From Pandoraea pulmonicola (lineage in GTDB: Bacteria; Pseudomonadota; Gammaproteobacteria; Burkholderiales; Burkholderiaceae): a stretch of 64,000 bases of DNA. The notes beneath the pieces were generated by a model, which saw nothing but the letters and a program-made list of their open reading frames with translations, did not search any database and was not told the DNA's origin. A program made the position numbers and the translations under genes. Below, one piece after another: positions 22,108-30,646 of this stretch (its first letter is position 1; every line of letters starts with the position of its first letter). The stretch lies in contig NZ_CP010310.2 of assembly GCF_000815105.2 (NCBI RefSeq), forward strand, positions 2,666,001-2,730,000, read 5' to 3'.

Positions 22108-22726
22108 GTGTGTTTCCCTTGAGAGGTGGTGAATACCGGCGACAACTCTAACACTTTCGTCATTTGGCGAGTGTCGGTGTTGTATCCGCGCCATAAGGCA
22201 CGCGGCTCACGCCAGAAGTTCGCCTTCGCGAGACGCCACGCGAACGCGATCCGGAGATCCGTCCCGTCACGTATCGAGAGGGCGCCGGCACTGGCCGGGC
22301 AGCGGCATTATAGAGCCATCGGCGGGCTGTGGGCCAGTCCTGACAACGGTTTGCGGCGATTTTGTCGTGGTGTACCGCGTATTTTCTCGTTCTTGGTCGC
22401 AAAACCCCAGTATCTGCGGCCATCTCCGGTCATGCCTTCGCGCAATCCCTTGCTGGGCGGGCTTTGGGGGTTTCCCCTAGCCTCTCGGGGGCTTGCGCAG
22501 GCGGGCGACTTTTGATTGGCGTCAACCCGTACTGTGCCGGGGCCTCACCTCTTCATTCCCCTGTCATCTGGACCGGCTAGCGTGACGCCGCCCGACGTCC
22601 GTGATATCCGCCATGCCGCAGTGGTCCCCATAATCGTTTCCACACGTGTTCTAGACTCCAATCATCGCCTCGCACATGCCGCCGCTCTGCGGCATCGCGC
22701 CTCGAGCCCCTCAAGGAATTGCCTCC
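22108..22726. other. Long intergenic region upstream of hupB
   Basis: 619 bases between two divergent genes. It must contain the hupB promoter (near 22120-22200) and that of the phosphodiesterase gene (near 22600-22700). I found no tRNA, sRNA-like hairpin with a T tract, or small gene with ribosome binding site that I could support. Confidence 0.5.
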
Positions 22727-23554
22727 ATGCTGCTTTGCCAGATTACCGATCTCCATGTCACTCGTCCGAATGCGCTGGCGTGCGGGCGTGTCGATACGGC
22801 ACGTGCGCTGCGTCACGCCATCGCTGCCATTCACCGGCTGTCGCCGCGCCCGGACGCGGTCATCGCCACGGGTGATCTTGTCGATACGCCATATAGGTCG
22901 GAATACGAAGTACTTCGCGAATCCCTCGCCGACCTGTCCATTCCGCTCTATCTGGTCGTCGGCAACCACGACCATCGCGAGTGGTTGCGCGAGGCGTTCC
23001 CCGATCACGCCTATTTGCACACCGGCAGCGAGTTCGTGCAGTACCGGGTCGATCTGGGGCCGATGACGGTGCTTGTCGTCGACACGCAAAACCCGCCCAG
23101 CCCGGGCGGCCACCTGTGCGAGACCCGTCTCGCCTGGCTCGACGAACAGTTGCGCGCCTGTGCGGGCCGTCCGACCGTCGTGGCGATGCATCACCCGCCG
23201 TTCGACACGGGGATTCAATGGATGGACGGCATGGGCCTGTCCGCAGCCGGGCGCGAAGGTTTCGGCCGCGTGATGTCTCGTCATCGTCATGTCGAGCGGG
23301 TCATCTGTGGACATCTGCACCGCAGCATTCACGCAAGCGTGCAGGGCGCGCCCGGAATCATGGCGAGCACATGCGTCTCGACGGCGCATCAGATCGCGCT
23401 GGACCTCTCTGCCCACGCCGCGGAATGGATCATGCTCGAGCCGCCCGGTTTTGCGTTGCACCTGTGGCAGCCGGGCGCCGGCTTGCGCACGCACCTGGCC
23501 TATGTCGGTCCGTACGACGGGCCGTACACGTTCGAGGGTGAGTCGGTCTCCTGA
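22727..23554 (+). CDS. Class III cyclic-nucleotide/calcineurin-like phosphodiesterase
   Basis: A 275-residue cytoplasmic metallophosphoesterase of the CpdA/GpdQ group. The metal-ligand motifs appear in order: ITDLHV near residue 8, ATGDLVD near 48, VGNHDHR near 80, MHHPP near 150 and ICGHLHR near 190. The enzyme is probably a di-iron or Mn phosphodiesterase, acting on 3-prime,5-prime-cAMP or on phosphodiesters such as glycerophosphodiesters; sequence alone does not separate these. The ATG at 22727 has AAGGA about ten bases upstream and starts exactly at the family N-terminus. It precedes the pel genes by 344 bases on the same strand, but linkage to them is not shown. Confidence 0.9.
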   Translation: MLLCQITDLHVTRPNALACGRVDTARALRHAIAAIHRLSPRPDAVIATGDLVDTPYRSEYEVLRESLADLSIPLYLVVGNHDHREWLREAFPDHAYLHTGSEFVQYRVDLGPMTVLVVDTQNPPSPGGHLCETRLAWLDEQLRACAGRPTVVAMHHPPFDTGIQWMDGMGLSAAGREGFGRVMSRHRHVERVICGHLHRSIHASVQGAPGIMASTCVSTAHQIALDLSAHAAEWIMLEPPGFALHLWQPGAGLRTHLAYVGPYDGPYTFEGESVS

Positions 23555-23898: not shown

Positions 23899-25317
23899 GT
23901 GACCACCGCCACGCCAGAAGACGCCGAACCGGCACGCAACGCGCCGTCGTCCGTCCGCGTACGCCGCTCGCAGCCGCTCGGCAATCTCGGGCGATGGGGG
24001 CGATGGATCGCCCCGGCCATGGCGCGCCCCTTCGCGCTGCTCGAAGTCGTGGGCGGCACGGCGTTGGCGGTTTTCGTCGCCTGGCGGCTTCGCCCCGACG
24101 ATCCCCTGTTGCTCACCACGCAGTTCCCATGGCTGTGGCTCGTCGCACTCGTCTGTGCGCTGCGTTACGGATCGCTCGCCGGCGTGGCGAGCGCGCTGGT
24201 GCTCGTGACCGGCTGGTACGGCCTGTGCGCGCGAGCAGGGACGCCGTTTCCCACGGTGCACTTCGCCGGCGGCACGATCGTCGCGCTGATCGCCGGCCAC
24301 TTCTGCGACATCTGGTCGAACCGGGCGCATCGTGCGCAGGGCATCAATGCGTACTACAGCGACCGACTCGTGGCCATCACGCACAACCACTACCTATTGC
24401 GCGTCTCGCACGAGCGGCTGGAGCGCGACCTGCTGGCCCGGCCGGTGACGCTGCGCGACGCGCTCACCCGCCTGCGCGATCTGACGTCGCGACGGGCAGG
24501 GGACCTCCACACGCTCGGCAGCGGCTTGCCGAATGCGCAGCCGATGCTCGAGTTCGCCGCGCTCACCTGCCAGATCGAGGTCGCTTCGCTCTTTCCGGTA
24601 CGCGCCGGACGGCTCGTGCCCACGGCCATCGCCCGCGTCGGCGAAGGCTTCGAGCCGAACCCGGACGACCCGCTCGTGCAGCATTGCCTACGTGACGGCA
24701 CACTCGCCCACGTGCGCGCAGACGACGCGGCGAGCGACACCAGCCCCTGTCTCGCCTGCGCGCCGCTGCTCGATGGCGACGGCACGCTGGTGAGCCTGCT
24801 GATCGTGCGCCGCATGCCGTTTCTGGCGCTCAATCACGACAATCTGCAACTGCTGCTCGTTTTGCTTGCGTACTATGCCGATGGCGTGGCGCATCAGCCG
24901 CTGGTGGCGAGCGTGCGCGAATTCGTGCCGCAGGCCCCCTACGACTTCGCACTCGAACTCGGCCGTCTCGCGCGACTCAAGCGCGCGAGCGGCATCGAAT
25001 CGTCGCTGGTCGCGCTGGCGTTCCCGCGCGGCGCGCGGGGCGACTCGCTGTTCGAGCAGACGGTGCGCCAGCGTCGTGCGCTCGACGCCCTGTGGACCAT
25101 CGGCACGCCGCGCCGCCAGATCGCGATCGCGCTGATGCCCATCACCGACGAGCATGGCATCGACGGCTATTTGATGCGTGTCGAGAACCTGCTGCGCCAG
25201 CAGTACGACGTCGATTTCGAGCGCGGCCACATCGCCGTTCACACGGCACACGTGGACCCCGATTCGCCCGGCGAGGGGCTGCTCAAGCTCGTGGAGCGAT
25301 GCGTCGACCATGGCTGA
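23899..25317 (+). CDS. pelD: PelD, c-di-GMP receptor of the Pel polysaccharide synthase
   Basis: A 472-residue inner-membrane protein (P. aeruginosa PelD is 455). Four transmembrane helices fall within residues 40-130, a GAF domain at about 180-325 and a degenerate GGDEF domain at 340-470 with no GGDEF signature. The c-di-GMP-binding RxxD is kept as Arg393-Ala-Leu-Asp396 within RQRRALD, as in the Pseudomonas protein. It should activate Pel polymerisation when c-di-GMP binds. Start: GTG at 23899 gives the family length; the frame is open to 23683 and no strong ribosome binding site decides. Its stop overlaps pelE by 8 bases. Confidence 0.92.
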   Translation: MTTATPEDAEPARNAPSSVRVRRSQPLGNLGRWGRWIAPAMARPFALLEVVGGTALAVFVAWRLRPDDPLLLTTQFPWLWLVALVCALRYGSLAGVASALVLVTGWYGLCARAGTPFPTVHFAGGTIVALIAGHFCDIWSNRAHRAQGINAYYSDRLVAITHNHYLLRVSHERLERDLLARPVTLRDALTRLRDLTSRRAGDLHTLGSGLPNAQPMLEFAALTCQIEVASLFPVRAGRLVPTAIARVGEGFEPNPDDPLVQHCLRDGTLAHVRADDAASDTSPCLACAPLLDGDGTLVSLLIVRRMPFLALNHDNLQLLLVLLAYYADGVAHQPLVASVREFVPQAPYDFALELGRLARLKRASGIESSLVALAFPRGARGDSLFEQTVRQRRALDALWTIGTPRRQIAIALMPITDEHGIDGYLMRVENLLRQQYDVDFERGHIAVHTAHVDPDSPGEGLLKLVERCVDHG

Positions 25318-26464
25318 GCTGCGACCCGGGAGCCCGCGCACGACCTCACGCTGGCATGCGCGCCGCAGCGGCCGCAGTGGAGTGAGGCGCGGTCTCCGTG
25401 TGCTGCGATGGCTGGCGCTGCTGGGCGTTGCCGTGCTGGCCATCGGATGCCAGGCGCATGCGTTGACACTCGTATTGACGACCGACGCGGTTGCCGGTCT
25501 GCAGGGCGCACCCTCGGCGCTCCCCGTGCCGCTCGCCTCATCCGGTTCGCTGCCGATCGTGCTGGCATGGCAGGCCGTGACGGCGTCGCTGGCCGGAATC
25601 TTCATGACGCACGTGCTGCCGCCAGACTATCGCGACCGGCGCGGCGTTTTCGTGCACGTGGCACTCATCGTCTTTTTTCTTCCGATGGCCGGGCTTGCGG
25701 TGATGTTCGGCGTGCTGCTGCTCGGCTACCTGTTCCCGCCGCCGCGCGAAGCGCGGGAAGCGCTGCACGTGAGCAAGCCCGGCTTCGTGTCGCATCTCGT
25801 GGCGCGGGTCCGGCACGGTGCAGGGATGCGGTTGCGCGCGCGCCTGCGCAACTTGCGGGGCGAGCGCGACGACCGCGTCGCGGCGCTCGTTTCCGTGCAG
25901 GCACTGCCCTCGCGCGTGACGAGCGAGATCGCGCGCGATCTGCTCGCCGATCCGGTCGAGGAGGTGCGCCTGCTCGCCTACGGCATTCTCGACGGGCTGG
26001 AAAAGCGCATCATGCAGCAGATCTTCGTCATGCGGGATCGCCACGAGGGCGCGCAGGACGACGACGAACGCGCACACGCCGCCCGGCGACTTGCGCAACT
26101 GTACTGGGAGCTGATCTACCAGAACCTGGTGCGCGGCGAAGTGCTGCGCTTCACGCTGGAGCGCGTCGAGACGTTCGCCCGCAACACGCTGGAACAGTAC
26201 GAGGACGACGCGTCGATGTGGTACCTGCTCGGTCGTTGCGCGCTCATGCGCGAGCAGTCCGATGCCGCCGAGATGTATCTGCGGCAAGCGCAGTTCCACA
26301 GTTTTCCGGCGGAGCGGCTGCTGCCATGGCTGGCGGAAGCGGCGTTCCAGAAGCGGCGCTACGACCGCGTCTCGCAACTGCTCGAGGGCATCGGCGCGAA
26401 TGCCGTGACCGGGGCCGCCGCGTCGCAGGTGGTGCAGCCCGCCGTGCGTTTCTGGACGCGGTGA
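25310..26464 (+). CDS. pelE: PelE, inner-membrane scaffold of the Pel synthase
   Basis: A 384-residue protein. An Arg-rich N-terminus is followed by transmembrane helices at about 30-55, 80-100 and 105-135, and then a cytoplasmic helical region with TPR-like repeats (residues 170-384), matching PelE. It is somewhat longer than the about 330 residues in Pseudomonas. In the known complex PelE bridges PelD and the PelF glycosyltransferase. It overlaps pelD by 8 bases and shares its stop with the pelF start (the A of TGA is the A of ATG), so the genes are translationally coupled. Confidence 0.88.
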   Translation: MAELRPGSPRTTSRWHARRSGRSGVRRGLRVLRWLALLGVAVLAIGCQAHALTLVLTTDAVAGLQGAPSALPVPLASSGSLPIVLAWQAVTASLAGIFMTHVLPPDYRDRRGVFVHVALIVFFLPMAGLAVMFGVLLLGYLFPPPREAREALHVSKPGFVSHLVARVRHGAGMRLRARLRNLRGERDDRVAALVSVQALPSRVTSEIARDLLADPVEEVRLLAYGILDGLEKRIMQQIFVMRDRHEGAQDDDERAHAARRLAQLYWELIYQNLVRGEVLRFTLERVETFARNTLEQYEDDASMWYLLGRCALMREQSDAAEMYLRQAQFHSFPAERLLPWLAEAAFQKRRYDRVSQLLEGIGANAVTGAAASQVVQPAVRFWTR

Positions 26465-28146
26465 TGGCGATGGCCGACGATTTCGCGTCCTCCTCATCCT
26501 CGGCGCCACGCGCCGACGTATCGAGCGCCTTTGTCGCCGACGTCGCACTACTGCTCGAAGGCACGTTCCCGTACGTGAGGGGTGGCGTGTCGTCCTGGGT
26601 GGACCAGCTCATCCGCGCATTCCCGGATTTGACGTTCGCGGTCGTGTTCATCGGCAGCCGCCGCGACGACTACGGCGAACCGGTCTACATCATGCCGCCG
26701 AATGTCACGCATTTCGAGGCTCATTATCTCTACGAGCCGCAGGCGGCGTCGACGGTGGGCGAACGCACCGAGCGCACGTCGCCGGGGCGTGCGGGGCCGG
26801 ACGAGCCCGCAGCCTTCGCGGATGTCGCCCGGATGCACGACCTGTTTCGACATCACCACGCGTCGCTCGCCGGCGATGGAGGCCCGAGCAACGAATCGAC
26901 GAGCGCCGGGGACGATAGTTTGCGCGGCGTGCTGTCGCGAATCCTGCCGAAATTGCAGGACGGCCAGACGCTTGCGCAAACGGCGTTCCTGCATAGCGAA
27001 AGTGCGTGGACGTTCATTACCGCGCGGTATGAGCGGTACTGCCACGATCCGTCCTTCACCGACTACTTCTGGACCGTGCGCGCAATGCACCAGCCGATCT
27101 GGCAACTGGCGCGGATCGCGCACGCCCTGCCGCCGGCGCGGATGTATCACACGGTGTCCACCGGCTATGCCGGGCTGTTCGGCGCCTTGCTGCGGATACG
27201 CACTGGCCGGCCATTGCTCGTGACCGAGCACGGCAGCTACACGAAGGAGCGCAAGCTCGATCTGCTGCAAAGCGAGTGGCTGCGCGACAACCGGGGACCG
27301 TTCGAGCGCGACATCTCGCGCGTAGGCTATTTCCAGAATCTGTGGATGCGCTTCTTCGAGGCCATCGGCCGCGTGTGCTACGACACGGCCGACGAGATCG
27401 TCGCGCTCTACGAGGGCAACCGCCGACGGCAGGTGAGCGATGGCGCGCCGGCCGGGAAGACCCGCGTCATTCCCAACGGCGTGGACATCGCGCGCTTCGC
27501 GGCGTTGCGCCTGTCATTGCCTGATCCGTCGCGCGAGACCGGCTCTCGGGCCGAGGACGCGGACATCCCCCCCGTCGTTGCCCTGGTCGGGCGTGTGGTG
27601 CCGGTCAAGGACATCAAGACGTTCCTGCGCGCGATCTTCATCGCGTATCGCGAACGTCCGGACGTACAGGGCTGGATCGTGGGTCCGGACACCGAGGACC
27701 CGGCCTACGCGCAGGAGTGCCGTGACCTCGCGGCCAGTCTCGGCATGGAGTTTCAAGTGCGTTTCATGGGCTATCGCGCCGTCGAGTCGGTGCTGCCGCA
27801 GATCGGCGTTCTGGCGCTGTCGTCCGTCTCCGAAGCCTTGCCGCTGGTCATGCTCGAGGCGGCCGCCGCGGGCGTGCCGGTCGTGGCCACGGACGTCGGC
27901 GCATGCCGGCAACTGATCGAGGGAGAGGGCGACGAGGATCGTGCGTTGGGTCGTGCGGGGCGGGTCGTGCCGATGGCCGATCCGGAGGCGCTCGCCAGGG
28001 CCATCGTCGACGTTCTGGAACCCGCCGAATGGCATGCCGCCCGTCGTGCCGGCATGGCCCGCGTCGAACGCTACTACCGGCTCGACATGATGCGCGACGC
28101 CTATCACACGTTGTATCGCCGCTGGATGGCGGGGAGCGCCGACTGA
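26464..28146 (+). CDS. pelF: PelF, Pel polysaccharide glycosyltransferase
   Basis: A 560-residue cytosolic GT-B enzyme of family GT4. The PelF N-terminal signature LLEGTFPYVRGGVSSW is at about 25-40. The nucleotide-sugar-binding residues lie in VGRVVPVKD (Arg and Lys) and the E-x7-E motif in SEALPLVMLE near residue 460. It polymerises GalNAc-rich Pel from UDP-sugars with PelD, E and G. It is longer than the usual about 507, owing to a roughly 50-residue Ser/Gly-rich insert at about 95-155 and an Ala/Ser-rich start. ATG at 26464 overlaps the pelE stop; an in-frame ATG at 26470 is an alternative. Confidence 0.93.
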   Translation: MAMADDFASSSSSAPRADVSSAFVADVALLLEGTFPYVRGGVSSWVDQLIRAFPDLTFAVVFIGSRRDDYGEPVYIMPPNVTHFEAHYLYEPQAASTVGERTERTSPGRAGPDEPAAFADVARMHDLFRHHHASLAGDGGPSNESTSAGDDSLRGVLSRILPKLQDGQTLAQTAFLHSESAWTFITARYERYCHDPSFTDYFWTVRAMHQPIWQLARIAHALPPARMYHTVSTGYAGLFGALLRIRTGRPLLVTEHGSYTKERKLDLLQSEWLRDNRGPFERDISRVGYFQNLWMRFFEAIGRVCYDTADEIVALYEGNRRRQVSDGAPAGKTRVIPNGVDIARFAALRLSLPDPSRETGSRAEDADIPPVVALVGRVVPVKDIKTFLRAIFIAYRERPDVQGWIVGPDTEDPAYAQECRDLAASLGMEFQVRFMGYRAVESVLPQIGVLALSSVSEALPLVMLEAAAAGVPVVATDVGACRQLIEGEGDEDRALGRAGRVVPMADPEALARAIVDVLEPAEWHAARRAGMARVERYYRLDMMRDAYHTLYRRWMAGSAD

Positions 28147-29522
28147 TGGCCGGTATCGGTTTCGAACTGCGGCGTCTGCTGCGCAGCGATACGCTCACGG
28201 GCGCGCTGGCCGCCTACAGCTATGCGGGCATCATCAGCGCCGGGCCGCTGGTGCTGTCGATGGTCGGTGTCGTTCTGGTCGGGCTGATGAGCCTGGCGAA
28301 CGTCCATCCGCAACAGGTGCTCACGCAATTCCAGGTCTCGGTCACGTACCTGATCGCGTCGAGCGTGATTGCCACCGGCCTCATCCAACTCGCCTTCACG
28401 CGCTATTTGAGCGACAGGCTGTTCGCGGGCGAGCCGCAGGCCGTGATGCCGTCCTTCAACGCGGTCACGCTCGTCACGACGGTCGTGCTGGGCGCCATCG
28501 GCCTAGCGCTGTCGGAGACGATCTTCGCGAACCAGCCGCTACCGTATCGCTGGCTGATGTGGATTGGCTTCGTGCTGCTGGGCAACCTGTGGATCGTGGT
28601 GCTGTTTCTCACCAGCGTGAAGCAATACCGGGCCATCCTCGGCGTATTTTGTGTGGGCTACAGCCTGTGCGTGGTCAGCGCCGTGCTGCTCGGGCGCTAC
28701 GGCCTCACGGGGTTGCTCGGCGGCTTCGTGATCGGCCATACGTGCCTGCTGCTGGGCCTCACAGCCATCGTGGTGCGTCAGTACCGTACGGTGACATGGT
28801 TGTCGTGGAAGGTCTTCGCGCCGCGCAATCTTCGGCTGTCGCTGGTCGGTGTCGGCGTGTGCTTCGGTCTTGGCGTATGGATCGACAAGCTGATCTTCTG
28901 GGCGTCGCCGGCGACCGGCATGGCGGTCATCGGCCCGCTGCGGGCGGCGCCGATCTACGATCTGCCGGTCTTTCTCTCGTACCTTTGCGTGATTCCGGGC
29001 ATGGCGGTGTTCCTGCTGCGCATCGAGACCGATTTCGCCGAAGCTTACGCGGGTTTTTTCGACGCGATCCGTCACGGCGGTACGCTGCGGCAGATCTCGG
29101 CCTCGCGCGTGCTGATGGTGCGTGCCGTACGCACGGGGCTCCACGAGATACTGAAGGTGCAGGCGGTGGTGACGCTGCTCGTCTTCGCGTTCGGCGACGA
29201 CTTGCTGCGGCTCGTCGGCATGCCGTCGGCCTGGCAGCCGCTGTTGCGTGTCGATGTCATTGCGGCGGGGCTGCAGGTGCTGCTGCTGGGCGTGCTCAAC
29301 GTGCTGTTCTATCTGGACCGGCGGCGCGACGTCCTGTTGCTCACCGGTCTGCTGGTGGTGCTGAACGCCTCGCTCACCTGGGCTACGCTGCACTACGGCC
29401 CGGCGCTGTACGGTTACGGATTCGCCCTGGCGCTGCTGTGCGTGCTGCTGCTCGGCGCCCACCGGCTGGCGCGCCGGCTCGCTGCGCTCGAATACGATAC
29501 CTATATGGGGCAGCAGGGATAA
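28146..29522 (+). CDS. pelG: PelG, Pel polysaccharide membrane transporter
   Basis: A 458-residue polytopic protein of the MOP/Wzx-like flippase superfamily with about twelve membrane helices. The start MAGIGFELRRLLR is the PelG signature, and FSV-type and IYDLPVFLSYLCVIPGMA motifs follow. It shares one base with the pelF stop (TGATG overlap). It is thought to move the growing Pel chain across the inner membrane. It is the last pel gene here; the next gene after 353 bases is a ferredoxin reductase, so no periplasmic or outer-membrane Pel component follows. Confidence 0.92.
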   Translation: MAGIGFELRRLLRSDTLTGALAAYSYAGIISAGPLVLSMVGVVLVGLMSLANVHPQQVLTQFQVSVTYLIASSVIATGLIQLAFTRYLSDRLFAGEPQAVMPSFNAVTLVTTVVLGAIGLALSETIFANQPLPYRWLMWIGFVLLGNLWIVVLFLTSVKQYRAILGVFCVGYSLCVVSAVLLGRYGLTGLLGGFVIGHTCLLLGLTAIVVRQYRTVTWLSWKVFAPRNLRLSLVGVGVCFGLGVWIDKLIFWASPATGMAVIGPLRAAPIYDLPVFLSYLCVIPGMAVFLLRIETDFAEAYAGFFDAIRHGGTLRQISASRVLMVRAVRTGLHEILKVQAVVTLLVFAFGDDLLRLVGMPSAWQPLLRVDVIAAGLQVLLLGVLNVLFYLDRRRDVLLLTGLLVVLNASLTWATLHYGPALYGYGFALALLCVLLLGAHRLARRLAALEYDTYMGQQG

Positions 29523-29875
29523 GCCGGCGCGTCCGGCCGGCGGCGTCCATGGCGGCGACATCGGCGAATCCTATGCCAATCCGGCCGGCCCGCAGGCGTG
29601 CGCGACCGGGCGCTGGCAGCATCAGAACCCTGACGGATATCAATAACCACGCCGAAAAACCCCGCGTGTCCGCAGGGGACAAATGAAAGCCATTCCCAAT
29701 TGGGGTAAAATAGTCGGGTTTTCCCGCCCTCGACCGAAAGTGAGTGCACCTGATGCACCTGGGGCCGGACATCGGGGCCATCACGGACGGCCCGCGCAGG
29801 TGCACCCCAGGCAGTTGGTACCCTTCCGGCCCGGCGCGTGCATCGCGCCGCCCTCCGTCAAACGTCAACGCGAAT
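29523..29875 (+). other. Intergenic region between pelG and fpr
   Basis: 353 bases. It probably contains the fpr promoter: a good -10 TAAAAT at 29706-29711 lies in a locally AT-richer patch, but no matching -35 is obvious at the right distance. No clear terminator for the pel unit is seen and no remnant of pelA, pelB or pelC. Confidence 0.45.
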
Positions 29876-30646
29876 ATGAGTTCACAGAATCAACAGACCG
29901 TGCTGGAAGTCCACCACTGGACTGATACGTTGTTCAGCTTCAAGACCACGCGCGATGCGTCGTTCCGCTACGTCAACGGCCAGTTCACGATGATCGGGCT
30001 GGAAGTCGAAGGCAAGCCGCTGCTGCGTGCCTACAGCATGGCGAGCGCCAATTACGAGGAAGAGCTGGAGTTCCTGAGCATCAAGGTGCAGGACGGCCCG
30101 CTGACCTCGCGTCTGCAGAACATCAAGCCGGGCGACAAGGTGATCGTGGGTCGCAAGCCGACCGGCACGCTCATCAACGACAATCTGCTGCCGGGCAAGA
30201 ACCTCTATCTGCTTTCGACCGGCACGGGCCTCGCGCCGTTCATGAGCATCATCCGCGACCCGGAAGTCTACGATCGCTACGAGCACATCATCCTCGTGCA
30301 CGGCTGCCGTTTCGCCAGCGAACTGGCGTACCGCGAACTGATCACGCAGCATCTGCCCGAGCACGAGTACCTCGGGGAGTACGTCCGCGACAAGCTGATC
30401 TACTATCCGACGGTCACGCGCGAAGAGTTCGAGAATCAGGGCCGGATCACGGAACTGGTCGAGTCGGGCAAGATCTTCACGGATATCGGCCTGCCGGAGT
30501 TCTCCCCGGAACACGATCGCGTGATGCTGTGCGGCAGCCCGGCCATGCTCAAGGACACGCGCGAGCTGCTGGAAAAGCGCGGCTTCGTCGAGGGTCACAA
30601 CCATGCGCCGGGGCACTACCTCGTCGAGCGCGCGTTCGTGGGCTGA
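29876..30646 (+). CDS. fpr: Ferredoxin/flavodoxin-NADP+ reductase
   Basis: A 256-residue flavoenzyme of the bacterial FPR class. The FAD-binding RAYSMAS is near residue 55, the NADP-binding STGTGLAPF near residue 110, and the C-terminus ends in the typical AFVG without a plant-type tyrosine. It passes electrons between NADPH and ferredoxin or flavodoxin in the cytoplasm and is often part of oxidative stress defence. ATG at 29876 is chosen from homology; there is no strong ribosome binding site, and the frame is open to 29744. A strong hairpin ends the transcript. Confidence 0.93.
   Translation: MSSQNQQTVLEVHHWTDTLFSFKTTRDASFRYVNGQFTMIGLEVEGKPLLRAYSMASANYEEELEFLSIKVQDGPLTSRLQNIKPGDKVIVGRKPTGTLINDNLLPGKNLYLLSTGTGLAPFMSIIRDPEVYDRYEHIILVHGCRFASELAYRELITQHLPEHEYLGEYVRDKLIYYPTVTREEFENQGRITELVESGKIFTDIGLPEFSPEHDRVMLCGSPAMLKDTRELLEKRGFVEGHNHAPGHYLVERAFVG

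What the first reader, a model, noticed from the sequence alone, without database searches (positions are those of the whole stretch)
23899..29522. pelDEFG without pelA, pelB or pelC: a c-di-GMP-gated exopolysaccharide synthase missing its export half
In the sequence: pelD, pelE, pelF and pelG overlap or abut by 1 to 8 bases and are all intact. The genes on both sides (phosphodiesterase at 22727, ferredoxin reductase at 29876) are unrelated, and the two flanking gaps (344 and 353 bases) hold no remnant of pelA, pelB or pelC. Known: PelDEFG form the inner-membrane synthase; PelA modifies the polymer and PelB/PelC export it. Inference: either pelABC is elsewhere in the genome, another export system is used, or the polymer stays in the periplasm. 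PelF also carries a roughly 50-residue insert.
Basis: partly seen in the sequence, partly recalled or inferred. Interest (0 to 1): 0.75.

Follow-up and report, generated by a model that had tools for sequence, protein, structure and literature searches.

The report
Pel sugar-polymer synthase without its exporter
Many species of the bacterial genus Pandoraea keep an intact machine for making a biofilm sugar polymer but lack the known parts that trim it and push it out of the cell, and the machine looks remodelled rather than decayed, so its product is probably handled in a new way.

Summary
pelD, pelE, pelF and pelG are intact at 23899-29522 in a closed 5.87 Mb Pandoraea genome, and PelA, PelB and PelC profiles find nothing in it.

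It is not a local accident. Of 32 genus genomes, 22 have PelF without PelABC, 7 have all of PelA, PelB, PelC and PelF (at another locus in the six read), and 3 have no PelF over cut-off. None has two PelF over cut-off.

The orphan genes form one clade beside Pandoraea's own canonical genes, sit at one site and are under purifying selection. One canonical genome keeps an orphan-type pelG fossil at that site. PelG, and less so PelF, changed sharply on the orphan stem; PelD did not. PelD's c-di-GMP ligands and PelF's EX7E pair are kept.

P. nosoerga, the window's sister in the trees, has intact pelDEFG but no match to PelABC, BcsC or Wza-type proteins and none over cut-off to PgaA.

Favoured reading: a c-di-GMP-gated synthase that has become independent of PelA, delivering its polymer to the periplasm and probably leaving it there. 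Export by an unrecognised channel remains open; no product was observed.

The parts
23899..25317 (+). pelD: membrane c-di-GMP receptor with degenerate GGDEF domain; ligand positions R186, R393, D396, R427 (RALD codons 25075-25086)
   Evidence: Pfam PF16963 E 3.4e-39; aligns to solved PelD structures; the four positions are invariant in 19 of 19 orphan and 11 of 11 canonical PelD; residue roles from PMC8461298, passages
25310..26464 (+). pelE: predicted membrane/TPR scaffold protein
   Evidence: No Pfam family; NCBIfam only a weak TPR match; similar by tblastn to PelE of canonical clusters
26464..28146 (+). pelF: GT4 glycosyltransferase; EX7E pair at residues 457 and 465; variable N-terminus and two insertions against canonical PelF
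   Evidence: NCBIfam NF038011, 728 bits; EX7E in 19 of 19 orphan and 11 of 11 canonical PelF; insertions in the alignment
28146..29522 (+). pelG: MOP-superfamily-like translocase, 12 long helices in the model; the orphan-specific cluster is at residues 359-363
   Evidence: Pfam PF16933 E 1.3e-138; AlphaFold2 model pLDDT 84.1, pTM 0.83; Foldseek matches to MATE, WzxE and MurJ structures; divergent sites
29554..29652 (+). 3' scar of galE (UDP-glucose 4-epimerase), lost in the window
   Evidence: tblastn to GalE residues 297-343, E 2.6e-5, frame translation; full-length galE match at this place in 15 of 20 distinct orphan loci; family named by NCBIfam
22676..23554 (+). upstream flank: calcineurin-like phosphodiesterase (context, not part of the system)
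   Evidence: Pfam PF00149 E 5.8e-17
29876..30646 (+). downstream flank: ferredoxin-NADP reductase (context, not part of the system)
   Evidence: Pfam and NCBIfam matches below the curated equivalog cut-off; found near an empty or pel-free site in the eight non-orphan genomes whose site was read

Best explanation
SHOWN: pelDEFG is an intact, old, selected four-gene unit, sister to Pandoraea's own canonical pel genes, kept at one site without pelA, pelB or pelC. INFERRED: c-di-GMP binding to PelD switches on the PelDEFG complex; PelF polymerises an amino sugar, probably GalNAc supplied by GalE-type epimerisation; PelG moves the chain across the inner membrane. In P. aeruginosa and B. cereus no Pel is detected without the PelA deacetylase, so this version must have become independent of it; the concentrated change of PelG, and less so PelF, beside an unchanged sensor fits loss of that partner. 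With no PelA-type deacetylase, no GH114 hydrolase to clear the chain and no exporter type shared by all carriers, the likeliest fate is a neutral, acetylated polymer kept in the periplasm or envelope. Retention is the weakest step.
For: PelABC absent from the genome and from all 22 orphan carriers apart from weak TPR-only PelB hits in two; PelF single; PelD ligands and PelF EX7E kept; dN/dS medians 0.105-0.183 over 18 orphans; one orphan clade beside the canonical genes whose main groups follow the flanking-gene tree; relative-rate counts for the window PelG 102 vs 21, PelF 74 vs 30, PelD 41 vs 33, with PelG and PelF excess also in two other lineages without full-length PelA; PelG sites clustered at residues 359-363 in the helix 9-10 turn, near helices that a published model puts against PelA_DA (PMC13254593, passages); P. 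nosoerga without match to BcsC or Wza-type and no PgaA over cut-off; galE next to pelG in 15 of 20 loci.
Against: No product or its place was observed. 20 of 22 orphan carriers do have a BcsC and 19 of 22 a Wza-type match, so borrowed export is possible in most. AlgE-type porins, NodB-type deacetylases and unknown channels were not searched. galE is lost in the window and other orphans and stands at the same site without pel in G245, so the substrate link is loose. The orphan-specific PelG turn is not shared by the two other lineages, and relaxed constraint at the transition could also give the rate excess. dS is near saturation.
Confidence: 0.45

Rival explanations
1. The polymer is exported through another outer-membrane channel: borrowed from cellulose (BcsC) or capsule-type (Wza) systems in most species, or of an unknown kind.
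For: BcsC in 20 of 22 and a Wza-type match in 19 of 22 orphan carriers, including this genome. Secreted polymer is the known use of PelDEFG relatives (PMC12345266 and PMC8461298, passages).
Against: No tested exporter is in all carriers; P. nosoerga (G092) has neither BcsC nor Wza-type, and PgaA is over cut-off in 0 of 32. BcsC is also in 3 of 7 canonical and 2 of 3 PelF-free genomes, so it does not follow the orphan operon.
Confidence: 0.33
2. The orphan complex makes a different glycan (other sugar, other acceptor or a short chain), and the PelF and PelG changes reflect the new product.
For: PelF and PelG stems are long while PelD's is not; PelF has variable insertions; galE is not always kept.
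Against: In the first alignment 169 of 200 canonical-invariant PelF positions are kept in all 19 orphans, including EX7E; 15 of 20 loci keep galE.
Confidence: 0.17
3. It is a decaying remnant with no function.
For: pelABC are gone, galE is lost in several, one relative (L058) has a pelE match in two frames, and the G154 copy is a fossil.
Against: All four genes are open in the window and in 17 of the other 18 orphans extracted; dN/dS medians 0.105-0.183; ligand and catalytic positions invariant.
Confidence: 0.04
4. pelABC are present but too diverged to be seen.
For: PelB and PelC are reported as fast-changing (PMC7112194, passages), and profile searches have limits.
Against: Closed genome; three independent profiles miss in G000 while finding 7 genus members strongly; GH114 absent.
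Confidence: 0.01

Closest known systems
Pel exopolysaccharide system pelABCDEFG (P. aeruginosa; also in 7 of 32 genus genomes)
   Same: PelD with c-di-GMP ligands, PelE-like protein, GT4 PelF, MOP-like PelG, in the same gene order D-E-F-G
   Different: No PelA, PelB or PelC in the genome; PelG and PelF strongly diverged. P. aeruginosa is reported to need all seven genes (PMC10269871, passages)
Gram-positive pelDEA_DAFG (Bacillus cereus, streptococci)
   Same: No PelB or PelC; galE often nearby in bacilli (PMC7112168, passages)
   Different: Those are monoderms and keep a membrane-bound deacetylase PelA_DA, needed for Pel (PMC13254593, passages); here no pelA of any kind lies in the operon and no PelA match in the genome
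g3 orphan pelDEFG (G079, G115, G152; nearest named PelF in the plasmid collection is Cupriavidus, 56%)
   Same: pelDEFG without full PelA match; PelG and PelF accelerated
   Different: Separate clade; a short PelB-like match just upstream of pelD in G115 and G152
g11 pel loci (G155, G205, G246, G267)
   Same: No match to the PelA deacetylase part; PelG accelerated in the three tested
   Different: Keep pelB, a GH114-only pelA and, where the stretch covers it, pelC
PNAG retained in the periplasm when PgaB is deleted (precedent for the mechanism)
   Same: Acetylated polymer kept inside when the deacetylase/hydrolase is missing, as told in PMC10269871 (passages)
   Different: A laboratory mutant of another polymer system, not a natural arrangement

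Membership tests
Canonical Gram-negative Pel system (pelABCDEFG) | PelF GT4 glycosyltransferase | tested here: met
   NCBIfam PelF, 728 bits, cut-off 100
Canonical Gram-negative Pel system (pelABCDEFG) | PelG translocase | tested here: met
   Pfam PelG, 463 bits
Canonical Gram-negative Pel system (pelABCDEFG) | PelD with c-di-GMP binding site | tested here: met
   Family match and four ligand positions conserved; binding itself not tested
Canonical Gram-negative Pel system (pelABCDEFG) | PelE | tested here: met
   tblastn similarity between window PelE and PelE of canonical loci and the same gene order; no family model matched
Canonical Gram-negative Pel system (pelABCDEFG) | PelA hydrolase/deacetylase | tested here: not met
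   0 matches in G000
Canonical Gram-negative Pel system (pelABCDEFG) | PelB outer-membrane porin | tested here: not met
   0 matches in G000
Canonical Gram-negative Pel system (pelABCDEFG) | PelC periplasmic lipoprotein | tested here: not met
   0 matches in G000
Canonical Gram-negative Pel system (pelABCDEFG) | Secreted, partly deacetylated GalNAc polymer | not testable with these tools
   Needs chemistry and microscopy
Gram-positive type pelDEA_DAFG | pelA_DA deacetylase inside the operon | tested here: not met
   pelE and pelF overlap by one base; no PelA match in the genome (a Gram-negative PelA profile, so a PelA_DA-type protein elsewhere is not excluded)
PelDEFG inner-membrane synthase (as a sub-complex) | All four subunits intact and under selection | tested here: met
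Orphan operon with a dedicated known exporter | One exporter type present in all carriers | tested here: not met
   BcsC 20 of 22, Wza-type 19 of 22, PgaA 0 of 22 over cut-off; AlgE-type not tested

The most novel reading that the evidence does not exclude
A Gram-negative genus turned a duplicated Pel synthase into a PelA-independent, c-di-GMP-controlled maker of a periplasmic or envelope-bound amino-sugar polymer, uncoupling Pel synthesis from deacetylation and export; and in this family, loss of the PelA deacetylase goes with remodelling of PelG and PelF in three separate lineages.
Probability: 0.4. Interest if true: 0.78.

Novelty: new variant of a known kind. Interest (0 to 1): 0.6.

Why it matters
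All seven pel genes are reported as needed for Pel in P. aeruginosa, and how a missing PelA deacetylase stops the polymer is unsettled (PMC10269871 and PMC13254593, passages). Here the synthase is conserved in 22 of 32 genus genomes with no PelA match, so natural variants exist in which PelG and PelF must have solved that dependence. If the polymer stays inside, it would be a c-di-GMP-controlled periplasmic polymer, an output not usually linked to this messenger (recalled, not searched).

Tried and rejected
Hidden pelABC: no match. Second pel copy: PelF single over cut-off. Decay: against it are open frames, low dN/dS and kept motifs, although L058 has a pelE match in two frames. Recent horizontal gain: the main groups of the orphan gene trees follow the flanking-gene tree. 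Anti-phage role: no PADLOC match for the four proteins. PelG had no sequence match in the PDB at E 0.01. Promoter and terminator scan: about as many sites as in shuffles, nothing used. A shared molecular change at PelG 359-363 in all three PelA-less lineages: looked for and not found. That the four nested canonical genomes regained their operon by transfer is not excluded; the fossil shows the orphan operon was once there, not how the canonical one came. One search used a Pfam accession recalled wrongly (another family) and says nothing. The stretches around BcsC and the Wza-type match of this genome (L083-L085) were fetched, but only searched for galE; their operons were not described. PelE was not used in trees; three g11 pelE rows ran across stops and were not used.
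Full report
WHAT IS THERE. The window is 2666001-2730000 of a closed 5,867,621-base genome whose nearest named PelF and PelG relatives are Pandoraea. pelD, pelE, pelF and pelG are open and overlap by 8, 1 and 1 bases; three are recognised by Pfam or NCBIfam, PelE by similarity to canonical PelE. The four c-di-GMP ligand positions of PelD and the EX7E pair of PelF are invariant in 19 of 19 orphan and 11 of 11 canonical sequences compared (ligand residues from PMC8461298, passages; the EX7E motif is recalled).

NO PelABC IN THE GENOME. Alignments of PelA (4 rows), PelB (5) and PelC (6) from canonical clusters were searched over the 32 held genomes of the genus, all first-look candidates being scored. 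Each finds the same 7 genomes (G031, G048, G062, G072, G154, G228, G233) strongly and nothing in G000; the only others are weak TPR-only PelB hits in G222 and G147. GH114 is absent from G000. PelF is over cut-off in 29 of 32, never as two genes in one genome: the 7 above and 22 orphan carriers. G010, G109 and G245 have none over cut-off.

FAMILY VIEW. Of 299 family genomes (drawn evenly from a larger group) 116 have PelF over cut-off and 87 of these have a PelA match beyond the hydrolase domain (contig- or frame-broken copies such as G228, G165 and G265 are counted in). In one search only the best two candidates per genome were scored for most genomes, so absences outside the genus are less firm. 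The 29 exceptions are the 22 Pandoraea, G079, G115 and G152 of genus g3, and G155, G205, G246 and G267 of g11. In g3 the region read holds pelDEFG and, in G115 and G152, a short PelB-like match upstream of pelD; in g11 it holds pelDEFG with a divergent GH114-only pelA, pelB and, where covered, pelC.

ONE SITE. In the window and the 18 other orphans read on both sides (L002, L005-L015, L057-L062) pelDEFG lies between HU/phosphodiesterase and the ferredoxin reductase. The window's scar is at 29554-29652. The site was read in eight non-orphan genomes: phosphodiesterase and reductase adjacent in G109 and G154; a partial phosphodiesterase in G031; none detected in G233 and G062; in G048 and G072 the pair is adjacent but HU is about 5 kb away; in G245 galE stands between them without pel. 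The sites of G228 and G010 were not read. The canonical operons of the six canonical genomes read are elsewhere.

ORIGIN. In trees of PelD, PelF and PelG (37 rows each, 19 of the 22 orphans) the orphans are one clade (100/99 to 100/100), sister to the canonical genes of G154, G031, G233 and G062 (node 96/91 to 99/98), with G072 and G048 outside. In a tree of flanking genes, that canonical group falls with 15 of the 19 orphans, to the exclusion of the L009 group (97/96); its exact place inside is weakly supported, the root is a midpoint, and G048 and G072 are sparse rows. The site in G154 keeps a 3' pelG fossil that matches orphan PelG (window 54.5%, residues 397-451) better than G154's own canonical PelG (36.7%). 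Duplication in an ancestor of the core genus with differential loss explains all this; regain of the canonical operon by transfer is not excluded.

SELECTION AND REMODELLING. Nei-Gojobori medians over 18 orphans (L058 left out, as its pelE match is in two frames) are dN/dS 0.105 (D), 0.183 (E), 0.163 (F) and 0.108 (G), with pS 0.50-0.57, near saturation, so rough; the six canonical genomes give 0.251, 0.210, 0.198 and 0.145. Stem lengths, orphan against canonical sister: PelD 0.25 vs 0.19, PelF 0.60 vs 0.23, PelG 0.70 vs 0.083. Relative-rate counts for the window (against L051, outgroup L050): PelG 102 vs 21, PelF 74 vs 30, PelD 41 vs 33. Over 5 orphans and 2 canonical rows the chi-square is 53-68 for PelG, 14-33 for PelF and 0.6-8.2 for PelD. 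Three g3 and three of four g11 genomes also show the PelG excess (29-44) and a PelF excess (38-52 in g3; 5.5, 24 and 38 in g11), with less in PelD (3-4 in g3; 8-11 in g11). So the excess goes with lack of the PelA deacetylase match in three lineages, including g11, which keeps PelB. In PelG, 20 of 164 outgroup-invariant positions changed in all 19 orphans against 6 in the canonical sister; in PelF 7 against 5 of 212 and in PelD 0 against 0 of 72, so for PelF the excess is not at the most conserved sites. With 12 orphan and 54 other PelG rows, 12 of 162 conserved positions changed and 4 lie within residues 359-363; 13 of 20000 random draws cluster as tightly (the window of five residues was chosen after seeing the sites). 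In the AlphaFold2 model, whose best structural matches are MOP-superfamily proteins, this is the turn between helices 9 and 10, periplasmic by my reading of the charged loop near 389-393 (inference). A published B. cereus model puts PelA_DA against PelG helices 9, 10 and 12 (PMC13254593, passages). This is suggestive only: several changes are conservative and the other two lineages do not share the turn.

EXPORT. BCSC_C is in 25 of 32 genus genomes: 20 of 22 orphan (not G222, G092), 3 of 7 canonical, 2 of 3 others. Poly_export is in 24 of 32: 19 of 22 orphan (not G168, G117, G092), 3 of 7 canonical, 2 of 3 others. PgaA is over cut-off in 0 of 32; the sub-threshold hits look like generic TPR matches. 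AlgE-type porins and unknown channels were not tested.

READING. P. aeruginosa is reported to need all seven genes and to make no detectable Pel without PelA or its deacetylase activity; the authors suggest that acetylated Pel kept in the periplasm is degraded by PelA's hydrolase, and cite PNAG kept in the periplasm without PgaB (PMC10269871, passages). In B. cereus no polymer is detected without PelA_DA (PMC13254593, passages), and galE is placed with pel and tied to its biofilm (PMC7112168, passages). The orphan genome has no match to PelA and none to GH114, so an acetylated periplasmic polymer that is not cleared is the plain prediction. That is inference; export by an unknown route or a changed product remain open.

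IN PRINT? Seven searches of the held library listed no title or abstract on a pelDEFG-only system in a Gram-negative or on Pel in Pandoraea. The operon survey PMC7112194 (passages) mentions Gram-positive clusters with only pelF and pelG and rearranged or lost pel loci; Pandoraea occurs in it once, in a cellulose passage. Its supplements and most subscription papers were not seen.

Noticed in passing
window 29554-29652: 3' scar of galE between pelG and the ferredoxin reductase; galE is full-length there in 15 of 20 distinct orphan loci.
   Followed up: yes
L075 10199-10363, minus strand (G154): Orphan-type pelG fossil at the otherwise empty site of a genome that has the canonical pel operon elsewhere.
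   Followed up: yes
L079 9503-12330 (G245): Phosphodiesterase-galE-reductase without any pel gene, so galE may have stood at this site before pelDEFG arrived.
   Followed up: partly
L058 8227-9242 (G198): The pelE match runs in two frames, so pelE may be frameshifted in this one orphan carrier.
   Followed up: no
L067, L068, L069 (genus g3): A second orphan pelDEFG clade; a short PelB-like match lies upstream of pelD in L067 and L069, an ORF with the same opening residues in L068, and by eye a response regulator and a LysM-like protein downstream.
   Followed up: partly
L070-L073 (genus g11): pel loci with a divergent GH114-only pelA and pelB (pelC where covered) beside pelDEFG and no match to the PelA deacetylase part.
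   Followed up: partly
L046 16992-17891; L050-L055: A separate GH114 gene follows pelG in canonical clusters of Paraburkholderia graminis and of the six canonical Pandoraea read.
   Followed up: no
genus g24 genomes such as G058, G113 and G144: Two PelA matches on different contigs or far apart in one genome, suggesting two pel-type clusters.
   Followed up: no
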